This document shows, one piece after another, positions 4,221-40,506 of a DNA stretch of 64,000 nt; position 1 is the first letter of the stretch; each line of letters begins with the position of its first letter. This DNA is from Pochonia chlamydosporia 170 (lineage: Eukaryota > Ascomycota > Sordariomycetes > Hypocreales > Clavicipitaceae), in the NCBI RefSeq assembly GCF_001653235.2, contig NC_035790.1, positions 8,370,001 to 8,434,000 of the forward strand, given 5' to 3'. The translations under genes and the position numbers were made by a program. The notes beneath the pieces are model-generated. The model searched no databases, had not been told where the DNA came from, and was given only the letters and a program-made list of their open reading frames with translations.

Positions 4221-6467
4221 ATGTTTCAACTTCCAGTTGAGTTGCTTAGGCAAATCGCTCGAAATCTTCAGCGAGAGAGAGATATTAGCGCCCTGGCTCG
4301 GACGAACCGCCGACTCTACGAATGTGTCAACGATGTTCTTTACCAATATAACGTACGGGAAAACAAAAGTTCGTCACTGTTCTGGGCAGCAGCCAGCGAT
4401 ACCGCCCAAACTGCAAAACTCGTGATCACAGCTGGGGCATCACAGCTCGGTGAAGCCTTGTGTTTATCGGCGAAAAATGAATGTTGGCAGGTGACGAAAG
4501 TTGTGCTAGCCAGCTGTGGCGACCAGGTCAATTTCAAGGATGAAAGCGGTAGATCTGCTTTGCACTGGTCCGTCTCAAAACAACATCTAGACACCATCAA
4601 GCTGCTACTTGCAACTGAAGGGGTGGAAATGGAGCTCCACGACGAAAATGGCCAAACTCCTTTGATACTAGCGGCACATCTGGGTCATATACCCGCGGTC
4701 AGGCTTTTGTTAGAAGCCGGAGCCGATGTGAACACTTCAGCCGCCGATGATATGGACGCTTTTGAAGCCGCCATAACTTCCGGACACGAGGATATTGCCT
4801 TGATTCTGCTCGAAACGGGGCAAGTGAAGTCAGAGGCCAGAGGTGCCACGTTAACGACGCCGCTGATAAGAGTGGCAGAGCTTGGGCTTTCCTCTGTTGC
4901 TAAATACTTGGTTGGCGAAGCGGGCGTTGATATTAACTCAAAGGATCGGGATGGCCAGTGTGCACTGTCAATGTCTGCAATGCATGGCAGGGAGCCAGTG
5001 GTTCAGCTGCTGATCAACTCTCCGGGAGTCGAGATAGAGGCAAGGGACAGTAAAGGCCGACCGCCATTTTGGCGAGCTGCAATGAATGGTCATATAGACA
5101 TTGTGAAATTACTCATTGACACTGGTAAAGTGGATATCAACTCGAAGAGTAAGACTGGAGGGACGTTATTGGCATGTGTTGCTTTTGATGGCAACGAAAT
5201 CGTTTTTAAGCTTCTCCTCGAGAATGGCGCCCAAGTAGACGTACGAGATGATGATGGTTGGACGCCACTCAAAAGAGCCGCGCAGTCTGGCAATGCAGGC
5301 ATCGTACAGCTACTACTTGATACGGGAAAAGTCGAAGTCGTCCCGGGTAATGATAGTGGGAGCCGGACAGCATTATCTTGGGCTGCTAGAAACGGACATG
5401 AAAACGTCCTCAAGCTTTTACTTGCCAATGGAGCAGACCCCAGTCGCGAGAACCCTGACCACACAACGACGCTTTGCAGCGCCGCCCAAGGCGGGCATAT
5501 CGGGAGCGTGCAGCTACTGTTAGATACAGGTAAGGTGGATGTCAACGCAATAATGCCATGGAATATGACAGCCATAGGAGTAGCCGCGTTGAAGGGACAT
5601 ACGCCGGTAGTAGCTCTTTTGCTCGCGTCTGGTGCATACGCCAACATTAGGTGTCAGGGAGGCTTCACACCACTGGCCCTGGCGGCCATGCAGGGATATG
5701 AACAGACTGTAGATTTCTTGCTGAACTCTGGATCCGTCGATATCGATATCAACACATTATGCGAGATCGAAGGGACACCTATCTCTTGGGCTGCTGCGAG
5801 AGATCATGTCAAAGTTGTTGAGCGCCTCTTGCAGGATCCTAATATTGATGTCAACATGGCAGATAGGGAGAATGTTACGCCGCTATTTCTCGCAGTTTCT
5901 GGTCGCAGCATAGACATAGCTCGGTTGCTAATGAGGACTAAGGGGATTGATATGAACACCAAAGATAAATCGAACGGGTGGTCGCCCCTATCATGTGCCG
6001 TGGGTGGCAACCATATCTCTATGGTTGGACTTCTATTGAGCTCCCACAGCATAGATATCAACTCCGAGGACAAATCTAACCGGACACCATCAACGCTTGC
6101 TTCGTTGAATCCAAGTCCTCGCTTGGCCACATTACTACTGAAGACCGGGAAGGTAAATCTAGGTTACAACCCAGACAGAGACAATGAGCTGCTCTTTTGG
6201 GCTGCGGAATACAACCACGGGGGTGTCATGCGGCTTCTCCTAGACTCCAAGAAGGTGAATGTCAACGCTCGGGACGAGGAGGGCCGGACAACTCTTTCTC
6301 TAGCCACGTCCAAGGGGCATCGCCGGATGGTTAGTCTCTTGCTACGACGAAGCAACGTCGATGTCCATGCTGAGGACATTCATGGCAAGACAGCATTGGC
6401 GTTGGCAATGGAACGGGGGGACGGACCGACGTCTGATCTGCTCCGGGTTTACGGAGCCCGACAATGA
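4221..6467 (+). CDS. F-box-like protein with about 19 ankyrin repeats
   Basis: A single exon of 748 residues starting at ATG 4221. Residues ~1-45 look like an F-box (FQLPVELLRQIARNLQ...DISALARTNRRLY), the module that docks on Skp1 in SCF ubiquitin ligases. From ~residue 50 to the end, ankyrin repeats follow in an unbroken series of about 19, each with the TPL-x-x-A-x-x-GH...V-x-LLL pattern (for example GQTPLILAAHLGHIPAV). Many repeats end in the same phrase, L-L-L/I-D-T-G-K-V, which points to recent internal duplication. No catalytic or membrane segment is present. Likely role: substrate receptor of an SCF-type E3 ligase, or a scaffold. In filamentous fungi such F-box-ankyrin proteins form large lineage-expanded families, often in variable regions. 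The target is unknown. Confidence 0.85.
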   Translation: MFQLPVELLRQIARNLQRERDISALARTNRRLYECVNDVLYQYNVRENKSSSLFWAAASDTAQTAKLVITAGASQLGEALCLSAKNECWQVTKVVLASCGDQVNFKDESGRSALHWSVSKQHLDTIKLLLATEGVEMELHDENGQTPLILAAHLGHIPAVRLLLEAGADVNTSAADDMDAFEAAITSGHEDIALILLETGQVKSEARGATLTTPLIRVAELGLSSVAKYLVGEAGVDINSKDRDGQCALSMSAMHGREPVVQLLINSPGVEIEARDSKGRPPFWRAAMNGHIDIVKLLIDTGKVDINSKSKTGGTLLACVAFDGNEIVFKLLLENGAQVDVRDDDGWTPLKRAAQSGNAGIVQLLLDTGKVEVVPGNDSGSRTALSWAARNGHENVLKLLLANGADPSRENPDHTTTLCSAAQGGHIGSVQLLLDTGKVDVNAIMPWNMTAIGVAALKGHTPVVALLLASGAYANIRCQGGFTPLALAAMQGYEQTVDFLLNSGSVDIDINTLCEIEGTPISWAAARDHVKVVERLLQDPNIDVNMADRENVTPLFLAVSGRSIDIARLLMRTKGIDMNTKDKSNGWSPLSCAVGGNHISMVGLLLSSHSIDINSEDKSNRTPSTLASLNPSPRLATLLLKTGKVNLGYNPDRDNELLFWAAEYNHGGVMRLLLDSKKVNVNARDEEGRTTLSLATSKGHRRMVSLLLRRSNVDVHAEDIHGKTALALAMERGDGPTSDLLRVYGARQ

Positions 6468-10019: not shown

Positions 10020-12140
10020 TCATGCATGTGTACATTCTTTGTGCTCTGTAGGCTCCCATCCCGCTTGATCTTCCGACCACAGAGTCGGAACCCTGCGGTA
10101 CACCCCGACGACTGTTAGTTCAGCGACCGTTGCAACCAAACCTACCAAGAAGCGGACAAAGGCGCTCGCCTCACTTGTGCCACAACACCACAGGCTGTAT
10201 GCCGCGCTCTCCAGCAAAATATTTTCTAGAACAACTTTATCGCGTACTGCACATTGCCCAAATTTCCGCTCCGGTGCTACAAATATTGCTGGCCAGTCAA
10301 GCGCGCTCAACACCAGCATTTCCACACTGTCATATATCATTGTCGAGTCACCTCCCAAGCTTTTTACTGCTGGCTCGGCAACAGGCCACAATTGTCGGAG
10401 TAACTGTGACACGACAGCTCTGTCGTAAGTCATCGACTCGGCATACCGTTCCACAACATGGTTGATCAGGTGTTCGCCTGGTCCCGTTTGAGCCAACCAG
10501 CCACAACGAGCTTTCCATGATTGATTTGCGGCCTCCAGGTTGATGTCAGCCGGAACCTCCGTAGTGAGCGGGCTCCAGTCCTCGTTGTATGGCACTTGGG
10601 GCCATTCATCCCTAGAGCCGCCTCTAATGAGCCACCCCCTTCGCGCGACGCCATGAATCTCCTCTTTGCGCGCCAGCCATGCATTTTCAAAACCTCGGTA
10701 CCTGAAAGCTAAAGCGTACATGGCGATGAAACCGACTGCAATATCGGCCCCGACCTCGTGGCGGTGCGATCCACACGAGCACTCACAAACTCGATCAATC
10801 ACATCTGAACAGAAATCCGCCAAGATAGCGGGATTCGATTTTCCCGACTGGCTCAGTGCGTAGACCAGGGAATTCCCGCCCTCGCCAATCGTCCGATCCA
10901 AAGCGTAGTCGCCTAGGTCATTGAGCCAGATTGTAATGTTGTAACACGCATCGACAAGATGGCATTCCTTCTGGGTATTGAGTCGGCGCATTTGAGGCGG
11001 AAGCGACCAGTCGTGGCAAACAAAGTACGGGATTACTCCTCCATCATACCAACGCATGTGAAGCCACGTACTCCTGTCAATCTTGTTTGTCAGTTTCCCT
11101 GTCGCTTCCGTCATGTCTTCCCCAAAGTCGAGCTCCGAGGCATCAGTATACCTCCCGTACCCTGGTCTTGTCAGGGCCGCCGCAATCATTTCCGCGCCAG
11201 CCTTGCCTTTCTCATTGTGCCTGGCTATAACTTCGAATCCCTTCGCCGATCCCTTCAAGGCCCCAGCCACATATTTGTCATCCTCGCCGTCCGGGGTCCC
11301 CGAGTAGTCGGGGATTGTGCAGCCCATTGCTGCTTGTGGGAAGGCCAGAACCGGTTGCATTCCTGAACTCCTGTGTAGCGAGACGACACTGAAAGTCAAC
11401 CAGACGCTTGTCATTAAGTCATAAAGCGCCCACATGCCCTTTGAACCAGTTATTTTGGAAAAGCTTTGAACTTGTACATCTCTGCTGGCACCTTTAACGG
11501 CGTGGGTTCCTCCGCCACTAGCCTTCTTCCCAGACAATGCAACTGACATTCTGAGGGCAGCGTAGTCTTTGTTGAATGCGTACACCTCAGGTTGCTGTAG
11601 GCGATGAGCAGTCCAACTGCCCAGGTCATCCCAGCTAGGAACTGGTATCTCAGAAGGGTCTGGAAGTGGAAGTGAACAACCATCTCCATTGCACACATAG
11701 CAGGCTCTGTACTCCATCCCAAAGTTGGATGTTGCCGTTGTGGTGCTTGTGACTGGTGATGATGGGCCAGAACGACACTCATTATCACTATCCAAGCTGC
11801 CTCCGTCAGCCCCCGGGGTGGATGTACAAGAGGATGTCGACTCAATTCGCATGGCAGATTCGACAGTCTCATCCGCACACAAGATTTTGGGCGTCTCAAG
11901 CGGCCAGTCATGGCTCTGTAACTTTGCACCGAGCTTTTCCCAGAGTCTAACATACAGAGGTTGTGTTTCAAATGTTCGCCCTGCTTCGTTCGCATATTCG
12001 TGCCAACCTTTTAGCAAGGCCACTCTCTTCAACAGAATTTCTTCTAATTCTGTTTTTTCGTGCACGGTGTTTGTGTGGTTTGTACAGGCTAAACAACCAC
12101 TTAGCCGCTGAACAAGAAAGTTTCGTAGGGTTGAAAACAT
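10020..12140 (-). CDS. Large protein with terpene-synthase-like helix H motif; unassigned family
   Basis: A single exon of 706 residues from ATG 12140. Residues 100-140 are Ser/Thr-rich and probably disordered; a Cys-containing segment (ACYVCNGDGC) follows at ~146-155. Residues ~355-430 read like helices G and H of class I terpene cyclases. An aromatic/proline stretch (PYFVCHDWSLPP) leads into NDLGDYALDRTIGEGGN (407-423), which lines up with the NDxxSxxxE metal-binding motif and the Gly-x-x-N that follows it, but with Asp411 in place of Ser and Asp415 in place of Glu. About 120 residues upstream is a weak acidic patch, GEDDKY (D287, D288), instead of a clear DDxxD. No membrane segment or signal peptide is seen. 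It lies next to a DUF1254 protein and two P450s. The gene is certain; the cyclase reading is inference from one motif region and could be wrong. Confidence 0.45.
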   Translation of the reverse strand: MFSTLRNFLVQRLSGCLACTNHTNTVHEKTELEEILLKRVALLKGWHEYANEAGRTFETQPLYVRLWEKLGAKLQSHDWPLETPKILCADETVESAMRIESTSSCTSTPGADGGSLDSDNECRSGPSSPVTSTTTATSNFGMEYRACYVCNGDGCSLPLPDPSEIPVPSWDDLGSWTAHRLQQPEVYAFNKDYAALRMSVALSGKKASGGGTHAVKGASRDVQVQSFSKITGSKGMWALYDLMTSVWLTFSVVSLHRSSGMQPVLAFPQAAMGCTIPDYSGTPDGEDDKYVAGALKGSAKGFEVIARHNEKGKAGAEMIAAALTRPGYGRYTDASELDFGEDMTEATGKLTNKIDRSTWLHMRWYDGGVIPYFVCHDWSLPPQMRRLNTQKECHLVDACYNITIWLNDLGDYALDRTIGEGGNSLVYALSQSGKSNPAILADFCSDVIDRVCECSCGSHRHEVGADIAVGFIAMYALAFRYRGFENAWLARKEEIHGVARRGWLIRGGSRDEWPQVPYNEDWSPLTTEVPADINLEAANQSWKARCGWLAQTGPGEHLINHVVERYAESMTYDRAVVSQLLRQLWPVAEPAVKSLGGDSTMIYDSVEMLVLSALDWPAIFVAPERKFGQCAVRDKVVLENILLESAAYSLWCCGTSEASAFVRFLVGLVATVAELTVVGVYRRVPTLWSEDQAGWEPTEHKECTHA

Positions 12141-13568
12141 TGTAGGACAAAATCCAGAGATATTTTGAGCAACTACGTAATCGATGATGTATGAAAGGTC
12201 CCTTAATCCACACAGTTGAAGTGTTGGATGGCTTTATACTTGATTCCCTCTTCACTTACAAGTTTTATACTGAATTCATACTCATAGTAGCACCAACACA
12301 TCCCGAAAACACTCCAACGTGTTGCCTACACGCCTACTCTGTATTCAGTTTTTCCATGTCGCCAGTTGTTTCAGCATCCACCCCCCTGTCCCCGACATAT
12401 AGAACCATTGCCATGATACATGAGCCCACAAGGATAGCTCGAGCTATACAATCTGCGTTATGTTACAGATACGATCGAAAAAAGCTGTTCTTCGGCTTGC
12501 CTGATCTGGCACTTGATGTAGTTGCATTAACACCCTGTACGACTCCTTACTTACGCTTGCAATCCAGATTTGCCAAGTGTTTTTGTATATGTCAGCTACT
12601 ACGACCACACTGCAATCAACTGGGTCGCTGAAATGCACTCAATTTAGGACAGTGAGAGACCAGCTGAAGGTACTCTATAGATATGATATATGATAAATCG
12701 AGACGGGATATTCATACATGGTGACCTCAACAACTACCGAGCTTCAGCTACTCCACTTCTCCTTGATAGAGAGACGGATGGGCCGGTGGATTCGGCACTG
12801 GAGCTAATATAGCATACATTATATGACAGCGGGCTAGTAATGTACCCGCAGATTGCCGGTTTAATTAATGAAACACAGTACGAGATACGTGGCTGAGTCT
12901 AGTTATGATACATCACAAGGGCTCACAATCCGTACTTGGGCATTAATATTTACAACTCCGCACACATCAACCATCTTACGGGGTGTACGGGTGTGATCGT
13001 GCAAGGCAAGGACGCCCTCGCCCCATAGCTTGTTTTCAATCGTAGGAATAAGTCACGAAATCGACGATTCGAGTGATTCATAACTCGAGCGTACCTTGGC
13101 TTGGCTCTGCAGATGCTGACCTCGGCTTTGCCGCAATGCCGTCAAGAACAGGCTCGTGGGCAATACAAACAACTTGACTAGCCATGTAGCGGCAACACTG
13201 AAGCCATGTCATACTATACAAACTGTTGCTGGTTCTGCCATCCAGAAGCTCTTAACTCTTCCTTCTCATACAAAAGTCTCCAGGAAAGCGTCTTGCTTCT
13301 CTTATTCTGGCTCACTTTGACAGTCCTTCGCTCAGTATGGCAAGTAAAGGCTGACAAGGCGGTGTGGTGTCAGACGGGTACCACAGAGAACTTCAGGTCA
13401 AGTCGTAGTTTAGAACCCACACCCCAATAAGAATTCCATAAATTGGTCTACGAGTCCAGAAAAGATACTCAATCTGCTAGCATCTCGCATCTGTGTGCTT
13501 CTGCATACAATCTGATGATGAAGTTGAAAATACGTGAACGGCAAAGGGAAAACACATGTACCGAAGCC
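12141..13568. other. Divergent intergenic region, 1.4 kb
   Basis: This region lies between the 5' ends of the minus-strand TS-like gene and the plus-strand DUF1254 gene and would hold both promoters. An in-frame extension of the downstream gene up to 13443 has no ATG at its start. No further gene is supported. Confidence 0.6.
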
Positions 13569-14990
13569 ATGATTCGTCTTCTTCAAGTCTTTATTTTTGC
13601 AATGGTATTTTCTGCAGCATCTGCAGAGAATGACTTGCTTACCCTGAAAGATCAGCATGATCTAGATGCCCTTGCTATCTCACTACACTCGCAAAACCCT
13701 TACGGAGATATCAAACAAGAAGCACGGAACCAGTTTTTGTCAACAGCTCAACGTTATGGCTACAAAGTTGAGACAAAGTATATAAAACACCGGCTTGAAT
13801 CGGCTGCGGATGAGCTGTCGTTCAGCTTTTTGCAGCAGGCAATCAACAATGATCCCTCCCGCCCCAAAGTCTACAGGATGATTACACCACCTCGACCCAG
13901 GGACTGGGATGGCTTGCCGGTTCCTAATGGACGGCTTTCATACGACAATCCCGATTGCATTTATCGTATCATTCCAGTAAGCGATTCACACAGTTACGTC
14001 ATATATGGTACGCGCACTGGAGTTGGTGCCTCGGATATCACATTCTCCCTTCATACCAGCATCACGGCAAGCACCATCGCCATTGTGGCAGGCAAAGATA
14101 TTGTCACGGATCAAGACGGCTCCTTTACCATTACAGTTAACTCAAGTGCTTCTTCGTCTCCCAACCATATCCAAAGCACACCAGCCGCGAAAGTGCTCTT
14201 TATTCGCCATAATATCGGTGACTGGCTTGTGGAAACTCCAGATACGCTCCGGGTAAAGCGGATAGGAGGGCCTTCTACCGAAGCCCCAACAAACGATACA
14301 GTTATTGCAAACGCCAGGGAATCCTTGCGAAGAAACATATTTCTTGCAAATTTTCTTCTTGGAAATCTAACGCTGTCTCGACCTGTGAACTTTATGGTTC
14401 CGCCGTCTCAGTCAACGGGGATGGGCTTGGCCACCCAGGCGCTTGTGTTATCGCACTACAACTTGAAGCAAAACGACGCCTTGGTGGTGACTGTTGAGGC
14501 TGGACCGTCAACATATTGGAGTGTCAACATCTACGACTTATTTATGCTTACTGATAACCCACGAAACAGGCTAGTGAGCTTGAACCACAAACAGGCGATT
14601 GCCAATAGAAATGGTTCACATACCTTCGTCGTTAGCACAGTCGACCCAGGTGTTTTCAACTGGCTCAATACTACGGAGCAGGGAGTGGGCACAATTGTGG
14701 CCAGATTTCAAGGACTTCCCCTGGGCGGCGACGCCCTCGGCAAAATCCAAATTTGGACACAACTCGTCTCCCGGGATATCTTGCACCAGGTTCTTCCAAG
14801 CGACACTACATACACGACACCCGAGCAGCGGACAAAACAAATGAAGATTAGGGCACAGGGGTATGACAGGATCCATTCATTCTTCGGGTCCTATTCCGCC
14901 CGTACAGGGCTTCAATGTGCTCCACAGAGGTTTCCAACGGGTTTGCAGGTGGATCGGATGGAACATGGTCCCTGTTGCCCGTCAGTGTAG
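13569..14990 (+). CDS. Secreted DUF1254/DUF1214 domain protein
   Basis: The ATG at 13569 gives 473 residues beginning with a clean signal peptide (MIRLLQVFIFAMVFSAASA); two earlier in-frame ATGs at 13515 and 13518 would bury it and are less likely. The N-terminal half carries DUF1254-like sequence. The C-terminal half carries the DUF1214 signature: a Tyr-Trp-Ser-Val-Asn-Ile-Tyr-Asp core, then LVSLNHKQA and a late FNWLNT...GTIVARFQGLP stretch. Several N-x-S/T sites fit passage through the secretory pathway. The family occurs widely in bacteria and fungi without an agreed reaction. It is divergent from the TS-like gene and in line with the two P450s, so it may belong to the same pathway; co-regulation is inference. 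Confidence 0.8.
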   Translation: MIRLLQVFIFAMVFSAASAENDLLTLKDQHDLDALAISLHSQNPYGDIKQEARNQFLSTAQRYGYKVETKYIKHRLESAADELSFSFLQQAINNDPSRPKVYRMITPPRPRDWDGLPVPNGRLSYDNPDCIYRIIPVSDSHSYVIYGTRTGVGASDITFSLHTSITASTIAIVAGKDIVTDQDGSFTITVNSSASSSPNHIQSTPAAKVLFIRHNIGDWLVETPDTLRVKRIGGPSTEAPTNDTVIANARESLRRNIFLANFLLGNLTLSRPVNFMVPPSQSTGMGLATQALVLSHYNLKQNDALVVTVEAGPSTYWSVNIYDLFMLTDNPRNRLVSLNHKQAIANRNGSHTFVVSTVDPGVFNWLNTTEQGVGTIVARFQGLPLGGDALGKIQIWTQLVSRDILHQVLPSDTTYTTPEQRTKQMKIRAQGYDRIHSFFGSYSARTGLQCAPQRFPTGLQVDRMEHGPCCPSV

Positions 14991-15707
14991 TAAAGACGAC
15001 AGACGCTTCAGTAGGCAGGAATTGCGGTAAAGGCAGAGGTTGCATCTGGTCTCAGTTTGATATGTGGAGCTGCAGGAGGCGGACAACATTTGGAGCTGGA
15101 CACCCTGGGATGTAACCAGGCAGGGGTGAACGCAATGATCTGGAGCCATTAATCTATAGTCTGTACGACAGATGCGGAATGTATTCGGGTAGAATGTTCT
15201 TCTGAATTCGCCACTTGGCTTCCTATATGCACGAAACTTGTGTGAAGCTGTTGAGAAAATTGCCCAAGTCTCGCTTGTTGCATACGCCGTTGGCGACAGG
15301 CCCTCGGGCTAGCCAAGTTTCCCAAGAAGCATCTTTGGAGGGTATACTTGGTAAAATGTAGTCGGATAGCCTGCAATAAGCTGTTGCAGTGTGGAGACAG
15401 CGTTTTTCCATGCTGAGTAGCTCGTTGATATGACAGTTTCCGCCTCCAATGTAGCATGACCAGATCTAGATTGCTCACACACCGAGTTTTGACATAAATA
15501 CCACAAACATATCATTGTGAATGTATTGGCTTCGCATAATATGACGTGGCAAGCTTATACATGCCACCTAAGAGAATTCGTAAAATTTATTTTTAACGAA
15601 GAGCCATACTAGGCGAAGTGAATCCCCCATCACGTTTGCAACCTTACTACTCTACACGCTCTCTTCCAGCAATACATTTTTTGCACTAGGAGATAACTCA
15701 ACCGACA
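14991..15707. other. Intergenic, promoter of first P450
   Basis: These 717 bp lie between the DUF1254 stop and the P450 start. Short opposite-strand open frames (up to 109 codons) show no domain. I see no distinct regulatory motif that I can defend. Confidence 0.55.
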
Positions 15708-17414
15708 ATGTCGCAACTCCTAATACTGAAGGCCGTTACTATTGCCATAATCGGGCTCCTCATTTATCGGCAATACTTCCGAAAAAGACCCAGCTTACCT
15801 CTTCCCCCAGGGCCGAAGCCATTACCCATTGTTGGGAATATTAAGGATCTCCCACCGTCAGATGTTCCAGAGTTCCAGCATTGGCTTAAGCATAAAGATG
15901 CTTACGGCCCTGTCAGCTCTGTCTCAGTACTGGGGCTGACAATCGTTCTCCTTCATGACAAGCAGGCTGCCCGCGCCCTCCTGGAAAAGCAGTCCAAAGC
16001 GTGCTCTGGCCGGCCAAGTACACTTTTTGGTGGCAAATTGTGCGGTTACGGGAAATGGATTGTCATGCAGCAGAATGACGATAACCTCCGTCGATCTCGC
16101 AAGCTCATGCACCAGCAGCTTGGTACGAAGTCGCTGGTTGCAGCCGAGTTCTCCAAGATTCAAGAGGCGGAGGTGCATCGGTTTCTGTACAGAATGCTCA
16201 AGAATCCAGACACTTTGGTTCAACACCTAAAAACGTAAGTTCGATTATTCATCGGGCGGTGGGAGAGAAAGAAACGAGCAGTACTGCGATAAACATGTCC
16301 AATTAACAGTCAACTAACAATTGTTTACAGCAAGGCCAGCGCCATCATATCCAAGGTCGTTTATGGTTATACAATTGAGCCACACAAACATGATCCCCTG
16401 GTAGAGTTGGTCGAACTTAATATGGCCAACGCTCAAAGTGCCTCAACACCAGGCGCTTGGATGGTCGATCTCATTCCCGCTCTCAACTATCTACCCAGTG
16501 GTCTCCCTGGCACAGGTTTTAAGAGGATAGCCCGCCAATGGAGTAAGATCAACCAGATGTCAACAGAGGTTCCGTACAAATTTGTTCAACGCCAGGTTGC
16601 GGCTGGAAGCCACAGCAAGTCATTTGTGTCCAAGCTGGTCGAGCAACAGGTTCAGAAAGGCAGTACAGACGGCCTCAAGTTTAGCCGCGACGAAGACGAT
16701 ATTCAATGGTCCGCTGCAATGTTATACAATGGAGGACTCGATACCACGGTCGCCATCTTAAGTGGCTTTTTTATGGCCATGGCCATGTTTCCTCAGGTGC
16801 AGCACAAAGCCCAAGAGGAGATTGACCGTGTCATAGGCGTGGATAGGCTCCCGGGGTTTGCAGATCGGCACAAGTTGCCTTATATTGATGCTGTTGTTCA
16901 AGAAGCATTTCGCTGGAACCCTACTGCTCCGCTAGGGTTTCCTCATATGGCCTCCGAGGACACAACTTACAATGGCAACTTGATACCCAAGGGAGCAATT
17001 CTGTTTGCCAACATATGGTGGTTTTGTCACGATCCCGAAATATACGCAGATCCTGACGTATTCAACCCTGAAAGGTACTTGGAGCCGCGTAATGAGCCTA
17101 ATCCTGTCCCAGAAATTTTCGGATTTGGGCGAAGAGTTTGTCCAGGACAGCATTTGGCAGAGTCGAGCGTGTTCCTCACCGTTGCTCAAACTCTGGCGGC
17201 TTTCAGGATCAGCAAGGCAACTGATCAGCAGGGTAGGGAGATTGATATTCAGCTCAACACCAATACTGGCTTAATCAACCGTCCAGTAAACTTCCCTTAC
17301 AAGCTCTCGGCCAGAAGCAAAGGATATGCCGATCTCGTCAACAGCATGGAAGTACAGCATCCTTGGGAGAAGAGCGATGCTGATCTGCTCGAGCTCGAAG
17401 GTCTCCATCACTGA
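15708..17414 (+). CDS. Cytochrome P450 monooxygenase, first of tandem pair
   Basis: Two exons, 15708-16234 and 16331-17414, joined across a 96-bp GT-AG intron in phase 2, give 536 residues. An N-terminal membrane anchor (LLILKAVTIAIIGLLIY) is followed by the proline hinge LPLPPGPKPLP. The I-helix has GGLDTT. The K-helix ExxR reads EAFRWNP, the PERF region NPERY, and the haem loop FGFGRRVCPG with Cys446 as thiolate ligand. All functional P450 landmarks are therefore intact and the length is normal for a microsomal fungal enzyme. It most resembles P450s of the O-methylsterigmatocystin oxidoreductase type, which usually act in secondary metabolism. Expected reaction: NADPH-dependent hydroxylation or further oxidation of a small lipophilic substrate at the ER face. 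Substrate unknown. Confidence 0.92.
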
Positions 17415-18701
17415 TACGAATGTTCTAAATTAGTCTGAGTAGTATTGAGGATAGATGAATAAAACAGCCGAATCAAGTCATGATCTAGGTTCTACTTTTT
17501 AAAATATTCTACCGCTTTAGCGCTCTCCTTCTTGCTACCCCGAATAAAGATTTGGACCTGATGGCAAACGACATTTGCATCATGACTCTAGAGCACGTCT
17601 CTTCATAGTGCAATATGAAATCAACTTGATACAAATTTATAACTTCATGTCCATAGCATGAATGTGATGGCCACTTCCCAGCATATTGCTACAATGTCGA
17701 CCCAAGTGTGCTCCAAAGATGTCTATATTCTCATCGACCAAACAAAGATCATGAATTTTCATGCAACTCCTCTTGGCAAAATTGCACCTCTAATTATGTT
17801 CTGTTGTTTTCCCCGTCCCTCTTTCTCTCCGTCAGGGAGACCAACAAGCCCAACTTCCGCGCCTTATCCAACGCTCCGCGTTCTGTTCAACGCCAGACAC
17901 CTATCCTAGTGACAGAAGTGTCCACGCTAGATGCAGTACATCGACGAACAAATAGGAAATGCTTTTAACCGCTAGCTTTCGCCACATTACAAACCCCCCG
18001 TCATCTGATAATATATTCTCAGCCAGCCTCGTTCTGTCTGGCCATATGATTTGTCATTTCTGCATGATGCGGCCCAAGACGGCCTGCATAGTCAGCCGGA
18101 CCCCTTATGCCTGTCCTATCTATGCAGGTTATAGAGACACCAAACGAAATTTTGACGCCAGACAATTTGCAGTGCAGCTAAACACCACATCCAGGGTAGT
18201 CTTTCGACTAAGTCCAGGCTATCTCGACGCGGCCCCTTGTGGGTATTTCTCAGGCCTCACTGCGTCCTCGCCATAGGCACAGAGTTTCTCTTTTGATCTG
18301 ACTCTCAAAGTATAGGTTATATATCATCTTTCAACCGCAAATTGACATGCCCGTCTCTGCATAAATCCCACCCCCCGTACATGCGGCCGGGAGACAAGAC
18401 CAGCAGAGTACGTCAGTATGTGGTATTTAAACTTGACTACTAGTTTGCTTGTCTCGGAACCATGTTAGGCCCCGTTTCATCAGCGCAGACGACGGCAGCT
18501 GGAATCCGGCATGCTGCTTCCGTTCATATACTGGGCTCATTGTTTAGAGGGAGACGCCGCGTAGCCTCCTAACCCGTTGAGATAGCACTCATAACGAAGT
18601 GTTGTGTTAAATAGAGCAAATAAACGCAACGGCCCAAAAGAGTTGAAGAAACCGCATTGCATGCATCCCCATTCTTGGGTTGTTATAATTTCATTCTCAC
18701 T
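17415..18701. other. Intergenic between the two P450s
   Basis: These 1.3 kb separate the tandem P450 genes. Open frames up to 105 codons are present without recognisable domains. The upstream in-frame TTG at 18657 is not a start; the first ATG of the second P450 is at 18702. Confidence 0.55.
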
Positions 18702-20409
18702 ATGGCACATTTGGTCGCCATTGCATCTTGTCTAACCGTTGCGATATATGTTGTTTGTCGATACTATCTTCACAACTATGCCTCCAAACGTCTTCCGCTT
18801 CCTCCAGGGCCAAAAGGCCTACCCGTACTTGGAAACATCCTGGACCTTCCGAAAAAAGGACAGCCAGAATTCCAGCATTTCCTCAAACATAGAGAGCTGT
18901 ATGGGCCGATTAGCTCGACTACTGTGCTAGGCAAGACATTTATTTTGTTGCATGACCGACAGGTTGCGCAGGACCTCTTGCAAAAGGAATCATTGAAGAC
19001 TTCGGATCGTCCGATAACCGAGTTCGCTTTTACTATGTGTCGTCTTGACGAGTTCATGGTCAGCCGGTGCAACGCAGACTTCCGTCACAGACGCAAGCTC
19101 TTGCATCAGCAGTTGGGCACTGCAAAATTGGTTGGGCGATTTGACGATTCCCAAGAGTCTGCGTCACTTGAGTTCCTGCTCCGGGTATTAAATGAACCAA
19201 ATGCCACGGTAGAGCATTTAAAATGGTAAGTTTATTGCATACAGTCCGAGTATGAGACTAAACCCATATCATACACCATTTACCAACACAAGTAGCTAAC
19301 CAGAACAAACCTCTAGCTCCATGGGCTCTCTCATTCTGAAAATGACCTACGGCTATGCAGTTGGGTCAAGCAACACGGATCCGCTGGTAGATTTGGTTGA
19401 CAGGATGGCGAACAACCTGGTCGAGGCTACAGTTCCGTGGTTGGTAGATTTCTTTCCTGCCTTGAGACATCTTCCAAACGGATTTCCCGGCGCCGGATTT
19501 AAAAGAACAGCGCGTAAGTTTAAGAGGGTCAATCTGGCTGTAGTCAACATACCATACAGCTTTGTCCGACGGCAAATGGCAGTAGGAAACCATCGGCCAT
19601 CATACGTTTCACAGTTAGTCGAGGAATGCAGCACTGGTGACACGGACTACAAGCTTCGTGATGTGGATGAATACGCAATCAAGCGAACGGCCGCAGCACT
19701 GTACCTAGGAGGTGCAGAGACGACGGTGACCGCCTTGACTGGCTTTCTTTTGGCGATGGCCAAGTTTCCAGAGGTGCAGAAAAAAGCCCAAGAGGCTATT
19801 GACTTGGTGATTGGTACCGACAGGCTTCCCAGCTTGGCCGATAGAGAAAGGCTACCATACGTCGACGCGATGGTAAAAGAGGTGTTCCGGTGGTCACCAG
19901 TTGCGCCATTGGCATTTCCGCACGGAGTAGGCGAAGATATAGAGTACAGGGGACACCTAATTCCCAAAGGCTCTGTACTTCTACCTATGGTATGGTGGTT
20001 TTTGAACGATCCCGAGATACACTTCGATCCGAGGTCGTTTAACCCGGATCGCTTTCTCGCCCCTCAAAACGAGCCTGACCCGAAAGCTGTGGTCTTTGGC
20101 TATGGCCGTAGAGTCTGCCCTGGAAAGTACTTCTCGGATAGCAACATCTTCATTGTTGTCGCTCAGCTATTGGCAGCGTTCAATATTAGAAAGGATGTTG
20201 ATGAGAATGGTGTGGAAATTGAGCCTGAACTCGATGCTCTGCCGGGGCTGATTACTCATTTGAAGAAGTTTCCTTTCAAAATCGAAGTGAGGAGCCCAAA
20301 GCATGCAGAGCTTATTAGGCAAGCTGGGCTGAAGCTTCCGCAGCAGGATGGTGACCGCCATATTATTGATCATGCGGCAATAAAAGAATGTTTGGAATAC
20401 CGGGGATGA
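18702..20409 (+). CDS. Cytochrome P450 monooxygenase, second of tandem pair
   Basis: Two exons, 18702-19225 and 19317-20409, with a 91-bp intron in phase 2 at exactly the position used by the upstream P450 (just after the VEHLK/VQHLK residues), give 538 residues. Anchor helix MAHLVAIASCLTVAIYVVC, hinge LPLPPGPKGLP, I-helix GGAETT, ExxR in EVFRWSP, NPDRF, and haem loop FGYGRRVCPG with Cys442. Side by side the two proteins share long matching stretches (for example LHQQLGT/MHQQLGT and VPYKF/IPYSF regions). They are clearly paralogues from a tandem duplication, but differ enough to have separate substrates or to catalyse successive steps. Function in a secondary-metabolite pathway is inference from family and neighbours. 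Confidence 0.92.
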
Positions 20410-21512
20410 TAGGATGACGGCGTGACAGGACGACAGGGGAAGACGAGCAGCAGTAGGCGAATAGCGGGATTCTCGATCTCTTTCGACTATTCCATGAAGT
20501 CCGACTGTGGCAGTACCATGACGTCGTTTGTCTTGTTTCTACGAGCACCTTTGATAGCCACAGATAGCAGACGATGAGCTAATGACATATTATTTGTCGC
20601 AATTTTAAAGCAAAATACGTTCCAAGAAACGTAAGGAGAGAATATAAATACTATGTTTCAGAAGTAGGTCCACGTTTTGTATAGGAATATTCTAAAAAGA
20701 TAGATACAATTTGCCATGCAGCTATAATAGCCTTGCCTATATGCCTGTTAGATTTGAAGTACCAGACCACACTAATTCACAGCTAGCACCTGATGCTTGG
20801 GCGGCAATGCTACTGCCCGTGCGAACATTGAAGTCTTTTAGTCTGAAAGGATTCTAGGCCTAGTGCCTCAACAATCCACTTAAGTACATTTAAAGATAGA
20901 GTAGAAGTCTCTCAGCAATACTACAGTACCATCGTATTTCCGATAATACCCTACAATTAACAACGGGGTAACGCATGTTTTCAACGTGGGCATGGCGTGA
21001 GCAAGACGCGCCAAAAAGACATGGACGCTTAATTCAGCTCTGAAGCAGCCAGCGGGCCTCAAAGCAGCAATGCAAAATCAGCCCATCCTCTTATATACCT
21101 TTTTGGTATTTATGCACTAGAGTCCTTGGCACTGCTTGGCAGCAACTAGTAATTAACCCTAACCTTAGCCTTAGTTCTTAAAAGTCTCTGCTTTTTCTTG
21201 TTGCTTGCCTACCTTTTAACTAGAGTAAGTTTAAGAATGGTATTAGCGACGGGCATAATACCTAATAGACTATAGTCCGACGCTTACCGGCAGAAGCGCA
21301 CGCTGCTAACCGCAACTTGGCTCGTGCAGGCAGCATAATGTGGCCATATCATATATGATATGATCTTCGGAAATCTAATCACATATGGTGATATCACACT
21401 ATTGCACACACTGGGCATGACTCCCTTCCGGCATTTTTTCCGCTTTGCTGAATGCCTCCATATTCGCACAGCCGAAGAAAGGGAACAAATAGCTCATCTG
21501 CGACGAGTCTGC
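20410..21512. other. Intergenic, becoming AT-rich
   Basis: No supportable gene. From about 21,080 the sequence gains TA-rich tracts (for example many CTTAG and TTAAG words) that look like mutated repeat DNA and lead up to the MITE. Confidence 0.5.
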
Positions 21513-21514
21513 TA

Positions 21515-21562
21515 CAGTGCCACTTCAAAAGTCTGTTAAATCCCCACTATTACACCAAAACC
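21515..21562 (+). repeat. Left terminal inverted repeat of MITE
   Basis: Starts CAGTGCCACTTCAAAAGT and ends ACACCAAAACC. It pairs with the right end at 39 of 48 positions. Confidence 0.85.
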
Positions 21563-21930
21563 TTAGCCAAATACTCCTTACTAAATCTAGTACAACTAAA
21601 TAGATTTTTTTAAATTCTGTTCTTTTTAGTTAATAATTACTAATATTTTAATATTATATTTTTTTATTTCTTATATAGTAAGTTCTTTTTAAGATATCTA
21701 GATTTAAAGATAGTATAAAATTTACTATTCTCTATAAGCCCTACTATAATCCACGATAAGAGAATTTAAAAGATAAGAGAATCTAGAAATAAATATAGTT
21801 AAATAATAAAAATATATATAGAAAATATAATCTAAGAATTATACTATTTTACTAATAAATAATATAGTATAAAATTCTTAGCTATTATCTTTTAGTACTA
21901 GTATTATTTTTTCTACTAGTTAAGATGGTG

Positions 21931-21978
21931 GGTTTTGGTGTAAAAGTGGGAATTTGACAAACTTTTGGGGTGGAGCTT
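21931..21978 (-). repeat. Right terminal inverted repeat of MITE
   Basis: Read on the minus strand it starts AAGCTCCACCCCAAAAGT and ends ACACCAAAACC, matching the left end. Confidence 0.85.
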
Positions 21979-21980
21979 TA

Positions 21981-23024
21981 CGTAAATGCTGCGCCCTTCC
22001 AGCCACGAAACAGGGTTCTCCCCATGCACCGCACCCCGCAAAAAGCCTTACCGTACACACTGCCACAAGTGGAAACTGAAAATCGAATGCCGCATTGCGG
22101 GGAACTTACTCGCTCGTGGGCTCGCTTCGCCATGTGGCTAACTAGCCTTATACTTAATAGGCGACAGATAGCCGTACCAATTATCTGAAGTTGTCATGAC
22201 ACCCCCTCGAAGGCGACTTGTAAAGAGCTAAGATCGGCAAGTGTGTAGCCCAATCGCACCCAGATGTACAATACTAATCAGGGCCAGGGGTTACAGGAAC
22301 TTTACCTTCAACAATGCAGAGCGCTGAGAGCATTCTTGATTGTCATTCCATCACAAGAAGTCAAACTCAGGCTTACAACCAAGCCGACCGATAATTTGGA
22401 AGGAACATAGGGTTACTATTTCCTTCTTGGCGCTATGTGACCCTTCTTTGGCGGTTTGAAGCTCTGCAAGCTTCACGATAAACCTCCGCTTAAATACTCA
22501 CTAAAGGAAATGTTCGCATCGGCTCCGACTCCCCCGGCGGTCCTGGTCAAGTTTAACTTGAATACTGTAAAAAGGGTAATAAGACCTGGAACTTTTGCAA
22601 GCCATTGCGGCTACACAATTCTAATGCGTGGCAGCAACTTGCGCGGCTGCTTAGACCTGCAAAGAGCATGGAACACGACCGCTTTTGACCACGGCCCCGA
22701 GGCCCCCGGCTGTTTCTAGAACCTTTCTTCGTCTACTCCGTACAGCCAAGCCAATAGTTGCGACTGTCATTAGACTAGGCCGACACAGACCATGACAAGT
22801 AGCCTGGTATGCCATGTGGATAGCAACATGGGGCAGAGTTTATGGGGCCCCGCAATGTCCAAGTACTCCGACGGCTTACACGAAATGCCGTGAGAAGCTG
22901 AGCATTAAATGACATGGGATGAATTAAGTACCTTAAGAAAGTCTATAAATAATCGACAGCACTCCCTTCCAAGACGGAATTCCAGGGCACTACCTTAGCA
23001 ACTGGACTCTCAACCGCTCTCGCA
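21981..23024. other. Intergenic, promoter side of GH43 gene
   Basis: Normal GC content returns after the MITE. Open frames up to 87 codons show no domain. The final ~100 bp hold the core promoter of the GH43 gene, including a TATA element. Confidence 0.6.
22944..22950 (+). promoter_or_regulatory. TATA box of GH43 gene
   Basis: TATAAAT about 80 bp upstream of the GH43 ATG at 23025. Confidence 0.5.
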
Positions 23025-24654
23025 ATGGCTATTCTTACTTCGATTTTCCTGACTGTTCTTGCAGCGTGCAAAGCGCAAGCTGCTGCCCTGCAGATCATTC
23101 CTGGAGCCGCTTGGACTGCTGTACGTGTTTTGTCAGATATTCTCAAGCACGTTGATCAATGTTTAACCACCAGTCTTGACAGACCAACACCGGGCAGCAC
23201 ATTCAGGCCCACGGCGCTGGTATTATGTAAGTTGAATGGTCCTCATTCTATGTCTCGACTTCCGGTAAACTAACGCAACTTCAGTGAAGCCAACGGAATC
23301 TACTACATGATAGGCGAGGACAAAACCAACGGCGCTCTGTTTCAGAACGTGAATTGCTATTCATCCAGCAACTTGGTCGATTGGAAGTACGAAGGCGCTC
23401 TCCTCTCCCGAACGGACGCAGACGTCCAGAAGGTTGCCTCGTTAGCCGACCCGAACAGCCTTGTCGAGAGACCCAAGGTCGTGTTCAATGAGAGAACCAA
23501 AAAATATGTCATGTACTTCCACCTCGATATCAAATACGAAATCGCTGAGGTGGGCATCGCCACCAGTGACACCGTGTGCGGAAAGTATACATTCCATAGT
23601 AGCTTTAGGCCAGGTGGCAGGCAAATCCGAGACATAGGCCTCTTTAAAGATGACGACGGGTCTGCATATCTTTTGGCCGAAAATGTAAGATAACCCTGTG
23701 TCTCAGTACCCGATGGATGATCAACTGACAGGTAACAGCGCCAGTTTGGGACAAACGAAGAAGTGCGTTCCATAACTTACATTATGTCCTTGGACTCTGA
23801 GTATCTTAATGTCACCGGAATCGTCCATACGTTCGAGAACCACGCCGCTGAATCTCCGGCTATGCTGAAGAAGGACGGGTACTACTTTATCTTCAGCTCT
23901 ACACTATCAGGCTGGGACCCAAATGACAACGTGAGTGACTTTAGCGGCTTGTTTTAGGGCTTGGCTTTGCTAACACATTTAACCATTCCAGTATTACAGC
24001 TACGCACCATCTCTCGCTGGCCCTTGGTCTAGCTGGAAGCTGTTTGCGGACGAAGGCTCCCTCACATACAGGTCTCAAACCACCTATATCTTGCCATTTG
24101 GCGACTCTGCAATTTATATGGGTGATCGCTGGCAGGAGCATAGTTTGGGGTCCAGCACTTATATCTGGCTGCCACTTGAATTCAAAGGTACCGAGGTTTC
24201 AATGCCATATAGAGATGTTTGGTCTCTGGATCCGATATCCAAGACTTGGTCTGGTTCTAAAACCACCGTTCTTGAACCTCAAGACGCCAAATTATCTAAT
24301 GGCGCTAGATTGGTAGGCTGTGACGGGTGCAGCTCCAGGTCGGCAGCAGGTTATCTAGGCGGACCTGAGCGTGGCGCCGTAACTTTTAGTGGTGGGCTTA
24401 GTAAATGCTGTAAAAAGGCAACCATTGTCCTGGTATACGTTAATGGAGATCTAACATCTCGATTTGCTTTAGTCACAGTTAATGGTAAAAAGCAAAAGGT
24501 TGAGTTCCCGCCATCATTTAATGATCAGCAAATTTCTAACGTTGTTATCTACGGAAATTTTCATTCAGGATCTGACAACACCATCGTTGTTGAAGGGGAT
24601 GACGGAGGCTGGGCCCCAAATATTGATAAGATTATTCTAGCTTGCGCCGTTTAA
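23025..24654 (+). CDS. Secreted GH43 galactan exo-1,3-beta-galactosidase-like enzyme with CBM35-like domain
   Basis: Five exons read in phase: 23025-23120, 23183-23226, 23285-23684, 23739-23930 and 23992-24654, giving 464 residues. Signal peptide MAILTSIFLTVLAACKAQA. The catalytic beta-propeller opens with TNTGQHIQAHGAGI, assembled across introns 1 and 2, then YYMIGEDKTNG, the strand ERPKVVFNERTKKYVMYFH and SPAMLKKDGYYFIFSS. These are landmarks of the GH43 subfamily that includes fungal exo-beta-1,3-galactanases. From ~residue 330 a CBM35-like galactan-binding domain follows, with a typical late GGWAPNIDKIIL. Established role of the family: release of galactose units from the beta-1,3-galactan backbone of arabinogalactan proteins outside the cell. 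All four introns are 50-65 bp, normal for fungi. Precise specificity is inferred. Confidence 0.88.
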
Positions 24655-27600: not shown

Positions 27601-29233
27601 TTGTTACGCAACTATAATGGCAAGGCAGCTTATGGCAAAGTCTATTATATGTGTGCCTGGTGTATCCCCATTAGAGCTTATAGCATAAGTGAGCGTGTAA
27701 GATGAAAAAGGTACCAACTAGTCATAAGGGCAGAGAGGTATCGCGGCTTATTGAGCAACTTCGCACGTTCATAAGGCGCAAAACATTAGATATAGAACGG
27801 AGAAGCGCATGTGTCGACGAATTGAGACATGCTGACTCTGGAATATGAGTCTAGATAATATACCGTCTCGTTCTTGTAAACTTTGGTAACAATATCCATT
27901 GTATGAGCAACCTTGTCAAATGTCGCGCTGTGGCCTTGCGTAAGCAAAGTCGCGCGGTTAAGCTGGAGAGGAAGTTATGGGTATCGTTGATTGCGTGCCA
28001 GTCGTCACTGTGGTAGAACTTTTCGAAAACATCTTCCGGCTCTGTGAGGGTCCATATACGTTGGACCACGGTGCATGAGATAGCCGCCATGGGTGAAAAA
28101 GGTCACGTGATAATACACGGGAACTATAGGATGCTTAGTTAGATTACTAGTGCTAAGGCAGATTAGACTAAGCACAACTAAGCAAGAAAAGCAGGACTAA
28201 TTAATAAAGAGATAGAAAAATAATATATATAGGACAGTTATTATCGAGATATCTAGCTAGCCTAGAGCTTTAGTGATTAATCTAAGCATTTAATTTACAA
28301 TTAATTGGGATAAACTCCTAACAATCTAAGCTCTCCGTTTAACAGCTTGTAAAGGTCTTCTTCACTTACAACCTAAGTTACCTACCCTAAGCAACAGAAC
28401 AATCTCTGATTGCCTTACTTGACCCTGTCAATATGCCGATCGTTACATGCCACTGCCGATGGTCTGGGTTAGACACCTAGGAGCCCAAAGGGCGAACAAA
28501 TGGCACCAAACTGTTACTTGCCGCCATTGTATCTTGGCAGTGGCCACTAACCAGTATTAGCCATCCAATGACTGTGGTGGCTGCCTAAAATGTGAACCAA
28601 TCAACATTGGCTGCAGATCCCTAGGAGGCAGTAGACAAGGAGAATCGGGCCACTTTGTACATTCCCGAGTTGCATGGCGTAGATTCCATACCAAAGCCTA
28701 TCTCATCAGGTATTACGGCACACATTGCCTCACAGGAGCTTTATTCAAGCCCAGGAAAGGAGCACACATACTGTAATCCAGGGCCGTAGAGATGTCTTAG
28801 CATGGTTTTTAACACTGTGTGGGTGGCTCTATCTAAAACGGCATCAAATGCAATGTGGCACATGCAGCAAGACCGGCCATAAAGCGCGCACTTGTTAAGT
28901 CACTGTAGAAATATTTAGCGTAGGGATGATACCTGATTTTAGTTTAATTCTGGCGTTGTGGTTTTTTTTTTTTTTGGTATAGCCTTTGCAAGAAGTTGGT
29001 TTGGGTGGCATGCTCGCTCGTAGAGTGCGCTACCCCAATAGGGTTGTAGCCGCATGCAATTAGACGTTGAAAAGCTTTGGTAAGTATGGTACGGCATGGT
29101 CACTACCCGTGCTCCGGATACATGAGTTAGGAGTTGTGTATGAGCCATATTCCGAGGGAACAATTGCTACAATATGGAAGGGGGGAGGGGATGGCACCGC
29201 CATTGTCTGCGGATCCTCATAGAATTGTTCCCG
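24655..29233. other. 4.6-kb gene-free block with AT-rich repeat relic
   Basis: No supportable gene over 4.6 kb. From ~25,060 to ~28,420 the DNA is strongly AT-rich with stop codons in all frames and abundant TA dinucleotides; GC returns at ~27,650-28,100 and after 28,430. A 79-codon frame at 27851-28090 (minus) is the best local open frame but matches no family I recognise. A T14 run occurs at 28962-28975. The block separates the GH43 gene from a membrane-protein gene and looks like one or more dead, mutated mobile elements; I could not find clear ends or a transposase motif. Confidence 0.5.
25060..28420. repeat. AT-rich degenerate repeat, probably RIP-mutated
   Basis: Composition shifts sharply from the flanking genes. 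Words such as TTAAG, CTTAG and TAGCTA recur, and even short open frames are rare. This is the usual look of fungal transposon DNA after repeat-induced point mutation. The element type is not identifiable by eye. Confidence 0.45.
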
Positions 29234-40439: not shown

Positions 40440-40506
40440 AGCATAGAGATATATCCGAATTTATCTGACATGACAACTTCCTCAGAGCCTTCAAGTACTT
40501 TTGATC

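What the first reader, a model, noticed from the sequence alone, without database searches (positions are those of the whole stretch)
10020..20409. Candidate small terpenoid-type gene cluster without a canonical backbone enzyme
A 706-residue protein with a terpene-cyclase-like helix H, a secreted DUF1254/DUF1214 protein and two paralogous P450s sit together in ~10 kb flanked by gene-poor DNA. No PKS, NRPS, DMAT or standard terpene synthase is present, so cluster-finding rules would likely miss it. The sequence shows the neighbours and motifs; the shared pathway is inference.
Basis: partly seen in the sequence, partly recalled or inferred. Interest (0 to 1): 0.75.

Follow-up and report, generated by a model that had tools for sequence, protein, structure and literature searches.

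The report
Divergent fungal terpene synthase gene cluster
A fungal gene for a strange, unnamed relative of terpene-making enzymes sits with two oxygenases and a secreted protein of unknown function, and close relatives of the set turn up in the same few other fungi, so it looks like a small inherited pathway for a terpene compound that standard searches would overlook.

Summary
The four genes are real: a single-exon 706-aa protein (minus strand), a secreted 473-aa DUF1214 protein and two P450s with one intron each. The search for the 706-aa protein found 5 relatives, 62-67% identical. It scores below Pfam's terpene-synthase cut-off, yet 6 of 6 members hit that family and no other. Profile-profile alignment to 18 class I terpene synthases scores 37.3; 200 shuffled controls reach at most 25.3. 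The signal is confined to about 94 columns: the Arg-x-x-Asp-Gly sensor and a helix-H motif (N-x3-D-x3-D instead of N-x3-S-x3-E). There is no DDxxD. The named species with this family (M. rileyi, Hirsutella minnesotensis, Daldinia vernicosa, Seiridium cardinale) are the same four that have close DUF1214 and first-P450 relatives. Contig lengths suggest all three genes together in Daldinia and partial linkage in the others; Hirsutella's synthase-like gene is on another contig. I read it as a small terpenoid cluster with a divergent, probably active class I synthase, analogous to but not the same as the Botrytis abscisic-acid cluster. Fold, activity, product and DUF1214 role are not shown.

The parts
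10020..12140 (-). Divergent class I terpene-synthase-like protein, 706 aa, single exon; stop at 10020-10022
   Evidence: ORF; 5 relatives at 62-67% identity; sub-threshold PF19086 in 6 of 6 members; profile-profile score 37.3 against at most 25.3 in 200 shuffles
11040..11054 (-). Sensor/effector segment R363-W-Y-D366-G367
   Evidence: coordinates checked; invariant in 6 of 6; aligned to the sensor segment of class I TS
10896..10922 (-). Helix-H metal motif variant N407-D-L-G-D411-Y-A-L-D415
   Evidence: coordinates checked; N407, D411, D415 invariant in 6 of 6; aligned to the NSE region
11280..11309 (-). Candidate replacement of the aspartate-rich motif: D278-Y-x-G-T-x-D284-G-E286-D287
   Evidence: coordinates checked; D278, D284, E286, D287 invariant, D278 120-131 residues before N407; its placement over DDxxD is at chance level
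12141..13568 (.). 1.4 kb divergent upstream region between the TS-like and DUF1214 genes
   Evidence: gene orientations; no repeats of 12 bases or more found
13569..14990 (+). Secreted DUF1214 protein, 473 aa, single exon, conserved cluster member
   Evidence: PF06742 E 9.9e-9; close relatives in the same four named species
15708..17414 (+). Cytochrome P450 'a', 536 aa, intron 16235-16330; conserved cluster member
   Evidence: splice model; PF00067 in both exons; 100/100 clade with one protein each of M. rileyi, Hirsutella, Daldinia and Seiridium
18702..20409 (+). Cytochrome P450 'b', 538 aa, intron 19226-19316; paralogue of 'a' (48%), accessory
   Evidence: splice model; PF00067 in both exons; 100/100 clade with M. 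rileyi and Seiridium only

Best explanation
This is a small, co-inherited terpenoid biosynthetic cluster. Its backbone enzyme is the 706-aa protein, a highly divergent class I terpene synthase relative. Proposed working: it binds a prenyl diphosphate (most likely farnesyl diphosphate from primary metabolism, since no prenyl transferase gene was seen beside it) through Mg2+ held by N407, D411 and D415 on helix H, plus an unusual acidic segment (perhaps D278-D287) in place of DDxxD. R363 senses the diphosphate, with D366 and G367 as the effector pair, and ionisation starts cyclisation. P450a, helped by P450b where present, oxidises the hydrocarbon at the ER membrane. The DUF1214 protein enters the secretory route and acts on, carries or stores the product there. 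Shown: the genes, the remote homology over the sensor-to-helix-H stretch, the conserved residues, the co-distribution and partial linkage. Inferred: activity, metal ligands, substrate, product class, order of steps, DUF1214 role.
For: Homology: PF19086 is the only Pfam family hit, by 6 of 6 members, best E 6.6e-4 (the six are related, so not independent). hhalign to a profile of 18 class I TS scores 37.3, E 5e-4, aligning the sensor Arg and the N-D-L motif in register; 0 of 200 column shuffles exceed 25.3; reversed profiles 17.8 and 17.6; P450 and DUF1214 pairings 13.0-18.3. R-to-N spacing is 44-45 in 6 of 6, and an Arg stands 46 before N in 13 of 18 TS. R363, D366, G367, N407, D411, D415 are invariant in 6 of 6. 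Co-inheritance: TS-like, DUF1214 and P450a relatives in the same four named species, from two subclasses of Sordariomycetes. Gene trees agree in pairing Daldinia with Seiridium; TS-like and P450a trees also pair the window with M. rileyi. One match each for TS-like and DUF1214 in this genome.
Against: No DDxxD; strict NSE consensus not met (D for S, D for E). Pieces of the family outside the sensor-to-helix-H stretch show no similarity to the TS profile (scores 13.6-15.3). Neither AlphaFold model is usable (pLDDT 37 and 32); the Foldseek search gave 0 of 256 matches at E <= 0.001. The acidic segment's placement is at chance level (41 of 100 flank shuffles do as well), and RY on RY occurs in 9 of 100. 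Hirsutella's TS-like gene is on another contig (265,656) than its DUF1214/P450a pair (81,749). M. rileyi's TS-like record is from a 115,003 contig with another locus-tag series, and Seiridium's P450 records from contigs of at most 785,932, so linkage there is incomplete. The DUF1214 tree does not pair the window with M. rileyi (conflicting split, support 43). P450b orthologues were not seen in Hirsutella or Daldinia.
Confidence: 0.7

Rival explanations
1. The 706-aa protein descends from a class I terpene synthase but no longer cyclises: it is a prenyl-diphosphate-binding or regulatory protein, and the pathway uses a hydrocarbon made elsewhere in the genome by one of the canonical synthases.
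For: No DDxxD and altered NSE; canonical TS loci exist elsewhere in the genome (8 PF19086 matches on 6 contigs).
Against: The sensor R-x2-D-G and N-x3-D-x3-D residues are invariant in 6 of 6 members although the relatives are only 62-67% identical to the window protein, which suggests a working active site. Described synthases lacking DDxxD are active (PMC11234867, part 1 of 3 and passages read).
Confidence: 0.17
2. The four genes are unrelated neighbours; only DUF1214 and P450a, or none, share a function.
For: Hirsutella's TS-like gene is on another contig; P450b was found in 2 of 4 other species; DUF1214 relatives at about 43% occur where no TS-like protein was found; expression data were not available.
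Confidence: 0.07
3. The helix-H resemblance is convergence and the protein is an unrelated all-helical enzyme of another pathway.
For: Sub-threshold Pfam score (17.9 against 23.7); signal confined to one stretch; unusable structure models; no relevant PDB sequence match.
Against: Profile-profile score well above 200 shuffles, with two motifs in register at near-canonical spacing; PF19086 is the only Pfam family hit, in 6 of 6.
Confidence: 0.06

Closest known systems
Abscisic-acid cluster of Botrytis cinerea (bcaba1-4)
   Same: Four genes, two of them P450s, plus a protein without recognised motifs which proved to cyclise FPP (PMC6876084, passages read).
   Different: That cluster has a short-chain dehydrogenase (bcaba4), and the passages read mention no DUF1214 gene. 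BcABA3 was described as without known motifs, whereas this protein keeps a recognisable sensor and helix H. Whether the two proteins are related was not tested.
Canonical class I terpene synthases, Pfam PF19086 (Terpene_syn_C_2)
   Same: Sensor R-x2-D-G (as in bacterial locus L070), N-D-L helix H in register, R-to-N spacing 44-45 against 46 in 13 of 18.
   Different: Below the family cut-off, no DDxxD, D for S and D for E in the NSE motif; longer at both ends, with no TS similarity in the C-terminal part.
Non-canonical class I synthases: BalTS (IB), AsR6 (IC), PeuTPS-type (ID), IE, IF
   Same: Class I-type reaction with replaced metal motifs (PMC11234867, part 1 of 3 and passages read).
   Different: Motifs differ: DYLDNLXD and DY(F,L,W)IDXXED in IB; Asp/Lys in IC; D(N/D), ND, RXXKD in ID. 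The family profile found no terpene synthase among 19 PDB sequences at E <= 10. IE and IF motifs were not read.
Fungal bacterial-type synthases (BTPSL) of Metarhizium and Ophiocordyceps
   Same: Terpene synthases found in a few entomopathogenic Hypocreales (PMC6592883, abstract and passages read).
   Different: Eight of nine BTPSLs carry DDxxxD and NDxxSxxxE by that paper; this family has neither in that form.

Membership tests
Class I terpene synthase (PF19086) | Profile score over the curated cut-off | tested here: not met
   17.9 bits against 23.7, E 0.0027 for the window protein; 6 of 6 members hit it, best E 6.6e-4
Class I terpene synthase (PF19086) | Remote homology by profile-profile alignment above controls | tested here: met
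   score 37.3, E 5e-4 over 94 columns; 0 of 200 shuffles above 25.3; other parts of the protein 13.6-15.3
Class I terpene synthase (PF19086) | Aspartate-rich DDxxD/E motif | tested here: not met
   no such conserved motif in the alignment of 6; acidic D278-D287 segment near the expected distance, but its placement is not above chance
Class I terpene synthase (PF19086) | NSE/DTE motif (N,D)DxxSxxxE | tested here: not met
   N-D-L-(S/G)-D-Y-A-L-D: aligned in register, with D at the S position and D at the E position
Class I terpene synthase (PF19086) | Effector triad Arg, Asp, Gly about 46 residues before the NSE motif | tested here: met
   R363, D366, G367 invariant; 44-45 residues before N407 in 6 of 6; that the triad is R, D, G is from PMC11234867, its R-x2-D-G spacing is recalled
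Class I terpene synthase (PF19086) | Alpha-helical class I fold | tested here: inconclusive
Class I terpene synthase (PF19086) | Cyclises a prenyl diphosphate | not testable with these tools
   needs an enzyme assay
Fungal chimeric prenyltransferase-terpene synthase (about 700 aa, recalled) | C-terminal prenyltransferase domain | tested here: not met
   no prenyltransferase Pfam hit up to E = 10 in any of 6 members
Botrytis ABA-type cluster | Two P450s + motif-poor synthase + short-chain dehydrogenase | tested here: not met
   two P450s and a divergent synthase present; no dehydrogenase in the 34 of 64 ORFs scanned, among them all 14 overlapping 10020-20409
Botrytis ABA-type cluster | Synthase homologous to BcABA3 | not tested
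   the BcABA3 sequence was not fetched in any call
AsR6/BalTS (classes IC, IB) | Sequence similarity to the solved members | tested here: not met
   no terpene synthase among 19 PDB sequences at E <= 10; sequence comparison only, structures not compared
DUF1214 (PF06742) | Profile score over cut-off | tested here: met
   36.2 bits against 25; 11 of 11 aligned members match at E <= 1
DUF1254 | Profile match | tested here: not met
   no match up to E = 10
Cytochrome P450 (PF00067) | Profile score and heme-Cys motif FGxGRRxCPG | tested here: met
   183.3 and 177.5 bits over second exons, 40.8 and 35.9 over first exons; FGFGRRVCPG and FGYGRRVCPG read from sequence; motif recalled

The most novel reading that the evidence does not exclude
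A new fungal subclass of class I terpene synthases: DDxxD replaced by an invariant D-Y-x-G-T-x-D-G-E-D segment, NSE replaced by N-x3-D-x3-D, with extra conserved regions at both ends. It is tied across two subclasses of Sordariomycetes to a secreted DUF1214 protein that would be the first DUF1214 member with a biosynthetic role that I know of.
Probability: 0.5. Interest if true: 0.72.

Novelty: new variant of a known kind. Interest (0 to 1): 0.58.

Why it matters
It would add a synthase family that searches at the Pfam threshold skip (the 5 relatives are all named 'hypothetical protein'), point to an uncharacterised terpenoid pathway shared by Hypocreales and Xylariomycetidae, and make a role of an unknown domain (DUF1214) testable. 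It also gives a natural test of how far the metal-binding motifs of class I synthases can change while activity survives.

Tried and rejected
AlphaFold on the full protein (pLDDT 37) and on residues 160-530 (pLDDT 32): six sequences are too shallow. The second model was not searched, being too poor.

Direct sequence search of PDB with the protein (4 rows) and the profile (19 rows): nothing relevant. The 19 are a leucine-rich-repeat protein and interleukin-1 beta entries at E 0.24-0.84, taken as chance.

Prokaryotic relatives of the 706-aa family: 30 pattern stretches, none a relative.

Chimeric prenyltransferase-synthase: rejected for lack of a second domain hit. DUF1254: not found.

The claim that D278-D287 sits where DDxxD should be is kept as a guess only: 41 of 100 flank shuffles also put an invariant acidic residue there; R480-Y481 landing on the RY pair happened in 9 of 100.

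A first small TS profile of own-genome sequences gave a weak hit (E 0.076) and was replaced by the 18-sequence profile.

Promoter, repeat, tRNA and Rfam scans gave nothing useful.

Papers: 9 searches. Three listed nothing: DUF1254 with terpene and P450 terms, DUF1214 with 'biosynthetic gene cluster', six locus tags of relatives; so did on non-canonical class I terms. One search listed three papers, none of them read. So I found no report of this family in the held library; subscription papers are mostly not held.

Full report
OBSERVATION. The window lies at G000:C1:8370001-8434000 of a 44.2-Mb genome in 49 contigs. The species is not told and I did not establish it; introns and relatives say fungal. 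The four genes exist. The minus-strand ORF 12140-10020 codes 706 aa without an intron. 13569-14990 codes a 473-aa protein with a signal-like start (read by eye) and a PF06742 DUF1214 match of 36.2 bits. P450a (15708-16234 + 16331-17414, 536 aa) and P450b (18702-19225 + 19317-20409, 538 aa) splice with GT-AG introns, match PF00067 in both exons and are 48% identical to each other. DUF1254 was not found up to E = 10.

NEIGHBOURS. One search lists 64 stop-to-stop ORFs of at least 120 aa. I scanned 34 of them, in whole or part, with Pfam, among them all 14 that overlap 10020-20409. The nearest with a hit outside the four genes are an F-box/ankyrin protein at 4218-6467 and a GH43-like ORF at 23274-23693. 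No PKS, NRPS, prenyl transferase or over-threshold terpene synthase was hit. Genes in short exons could have been missed, since no gene finder was run.

THE 706-AA FAMILY. A search of about 5.8 billion clustered proteins returned 6 rows: the window protein and 5 relatives at 62-67% identity: Metarhizium rileyi, Daldinia vernicosa, Seiridium cardinale, Hirsutella minnesotensis and one JGI protein. Only the 7,996 candidates sharing most words were scored, so remoter relatives may exist. A scan of prokaryote genomes found no relative. One match was found in its own genome.

IS IT A TERPENE SYNTHASE? The only Pfam family that any of the 6 members hits up to E = 10 is PF19086, hit by 6 of 6, best E 6.6e-4, the window protein at 17.9 bits against a cut-off of 23.7. 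The six are related, so these are not six independent tests. Among NCBIfam models, 4-epi-cubebol synthase is hit by 3 of 6 at best E 0.029, and an unrelated sorting-system model by 1 of 6 at 0.022. I built a profile of 18 class I synthases: 17 actinobacterial sequences (20 fetched, 3 dropped because the motif pattern was not found in an ORF over the match) and one from this genome. hhalign gives score 37.3, E 5e-4 over 94 columns, with W-L-H-M-R363-W-Y-D366-G367 on the sensor segment and I-W-L-N407-D-L on the helix-H motif. Controls: reversed profiles 17.8 and 17.6; 100 column shuffles of the family at most 25.3; 100 of the synthase profile at most 21.7; DUF1214 and P450 profiles against synthases 13.0 and 15.8; the family against P450 and DUF1214 profiles 14.4 and 18.3. 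Cutting the family into pieces, columns 156-520 score 37.6, but columns 156-340, 431-end and 506-end score only 15.3, 13.6 and 13.8: the resemblance rests on one stretch. R363 to N407 is 44 residues (45 in one relative); an Arg stands 46 before the motif in 13 of 18 synthases.

ACTIVE-SITE DIFFERENCES. The canonical N-D-x-x-S-x-x-x-E appears as N-D-L-(S/G)-D-Y-A-L-D, invariant at N407, D411 and D415. There is no DDxxD. An acidic run D278-Y-x-G-T-x-D284-G-E286-D287, invariant at the named acids, has D278 120-131 residues before N407, where a simple pattern finds an acidic motif at 135-149 in 12 of 18 synthases. A forced long alignment puts D278 in the DDxxD window and R480-Y481 over the canonical RY pair, but shuffling the flanks puts an invariant acid there in 41 of 100 runs and RY on RY in 9 of 100. 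These two placements are suggestions only.

STRUCTURE. Two AlphaFold jobs failed to give usable models: pLDDT 37.0, pTM 0.42 for the full protein; 32.3 and 0.30 for residues 160-530. The Foldseek search gave 256 matches, 0 at E <= 0.001. The fold is therefore untested.

IS IT A CLUSTER? The DUF1214 search gave 21 rows; the close ones (59-64% identity) that carry a species name are Daldinia, M. rileyi, Hirsutella and Seiridium, the same four. Searching with both P450s (393 hits at E <= 1e-150, best 120 listed), the best 6 rows are M. rileyi twice, Hirsutella, Daldinia and Seiridium twice. P450a forms a 100/100 clade with one protein of each of the four species plus P0114; P450b forms a 100/100 clade with M. 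rileyi and Seiridium only (21 rows in the tree). The four belong to Hypocreales (two families) and to two orders of Xylariomycetidae.

LINKAGE is judged from equal contig lengths in the tables, an inference and not a reading of gene order. Daldinia: TS-like, DUF1214 and P450a on 578,473. M. rileyi: DUF1214 and two P450s on 284,438; its TS-like record is on 115,003 with another locus-tag series. Seiridium: TS-like and DUF1214 on 10,588,016; its P450 records on contigs of at most 785,932. Hirsutella: DUF1214 and P450a numbered HIM_09778 and HIM_09779 on 81,749; its TS-like gene HIM_08174 on 265,656. A near-identical unnamed source has DUF1214 (96%) and a P450a piece (99.7%) both on 50,870.

TREES (re-read). 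Small trees agree in pairing Daldinia with Seiridium: support 100 in TS-like and P450a; in DUF1214 62 for the pair and 78 for the pair plus an ENA row. The window pairs with M. rileyi in TS-like (70) and P450a (95). In DUF1214 it does not: M. rileyi falls on the Daldinia/Seiridium side with support 43, too weak to decide. DUF1214 also has relatives at about 43% in fungi for which no TS-like protein was found, for example a Lecanicillium, so the domain is not confined to this cluster. One DUF1214 match was found in this genome, while the P450 family has three further close copies on contigs C8, C6 and C3 (49-52% to the Daldinia protein).

MECHANISM. See Best explanation. A sesquiterpene is my first guess because no prenyl transferase gene was seen and because some P450 relatives carry names such as CLM2 and fmaG, which I recall as sesquiterpene oxidases; the commonest name there, O-methylsterigmatocystin oxidoreductase, points elsewhere, so these are weak hints. 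For the DUF1214 protein the only solved relative found is an uncharacterised protein, 6ans; a role in the secretory route follows only from the signal-like start.

COMPARISON. The Botrytis abscisic-acid cluster is the nearest precedent in logic: two P450s, a dehydrogenase and a protein without known motifs that cyclises FPP (PMC6876084, passages). Non-canonical class I synthases with other replaced motifs are active (PMC11234867, part 1 of 3 and passages). This family differs from those read in motif and, as far as tested, in sequence. Searches of the held library on DUF1254, on DUF1214 with 'biosynthetic gene cluster' and on six locus tags of relatives listed nothing.

VERDICT. My odds: co-inherited unit about 0.9; class I synthase ancestry about 0.85-0.9; active cyclase as described 0.7; sesquiterpene about 0.5.

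Noticed in passing
window 1027-1950 (-): Sulfotransferase-domain ORF (PF17784, E 1.5e-55) about 8 kb left of the cluster; whether it belongs to the pathway is not known.
   Followed up: no
window 4218-6467 (+): 749-aa ORF with F-box-like and ankyrin-repeat matches next to the cluster.
   Followed up: no
window 20001-22000 and 24001-28000: AT-rich stretches (GC 0.39-0.40 against 0.48-0.49 beside them) to the right of the cluster, perhaps repeat-derived.
   Followed up: no
window 44929-45435 (+): Egh16-like domain ORF (PF11327, E 3.7e-13).
   Followed up: no
window 29234-31135 (-), 40474-41946 (+), 51690-54329 (-): Long ORFs of 633, 490 and 879 aa without any Pfam match at E <= 0.01.
   Followed up: no
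window 57699-62734 (+): Two overlapping ORFs with RINGv/DUF7889 and MARCHF6_C matches, probably one membrane ubiquitin ligase gene with an intron.
   Followed up: no
window 10020-12140, C-terminus of the 706-aa protein: The tail E-H-x-x-C-T-H is invariant at the named residues in 6 of 6; in the window protein it ends C-T-H-A, but 4 of 5 relatives run on further, so a prenylation box is unlikely.
   Followed up: partly
L010-L034: Records labelled mostly Mycobacterium or Mycolicibacterium encode relatives of P0026, a longer Ig-like plus DUF1214 protein that is 29% identical to the window's DUF1214 protein.
   Followed up: no
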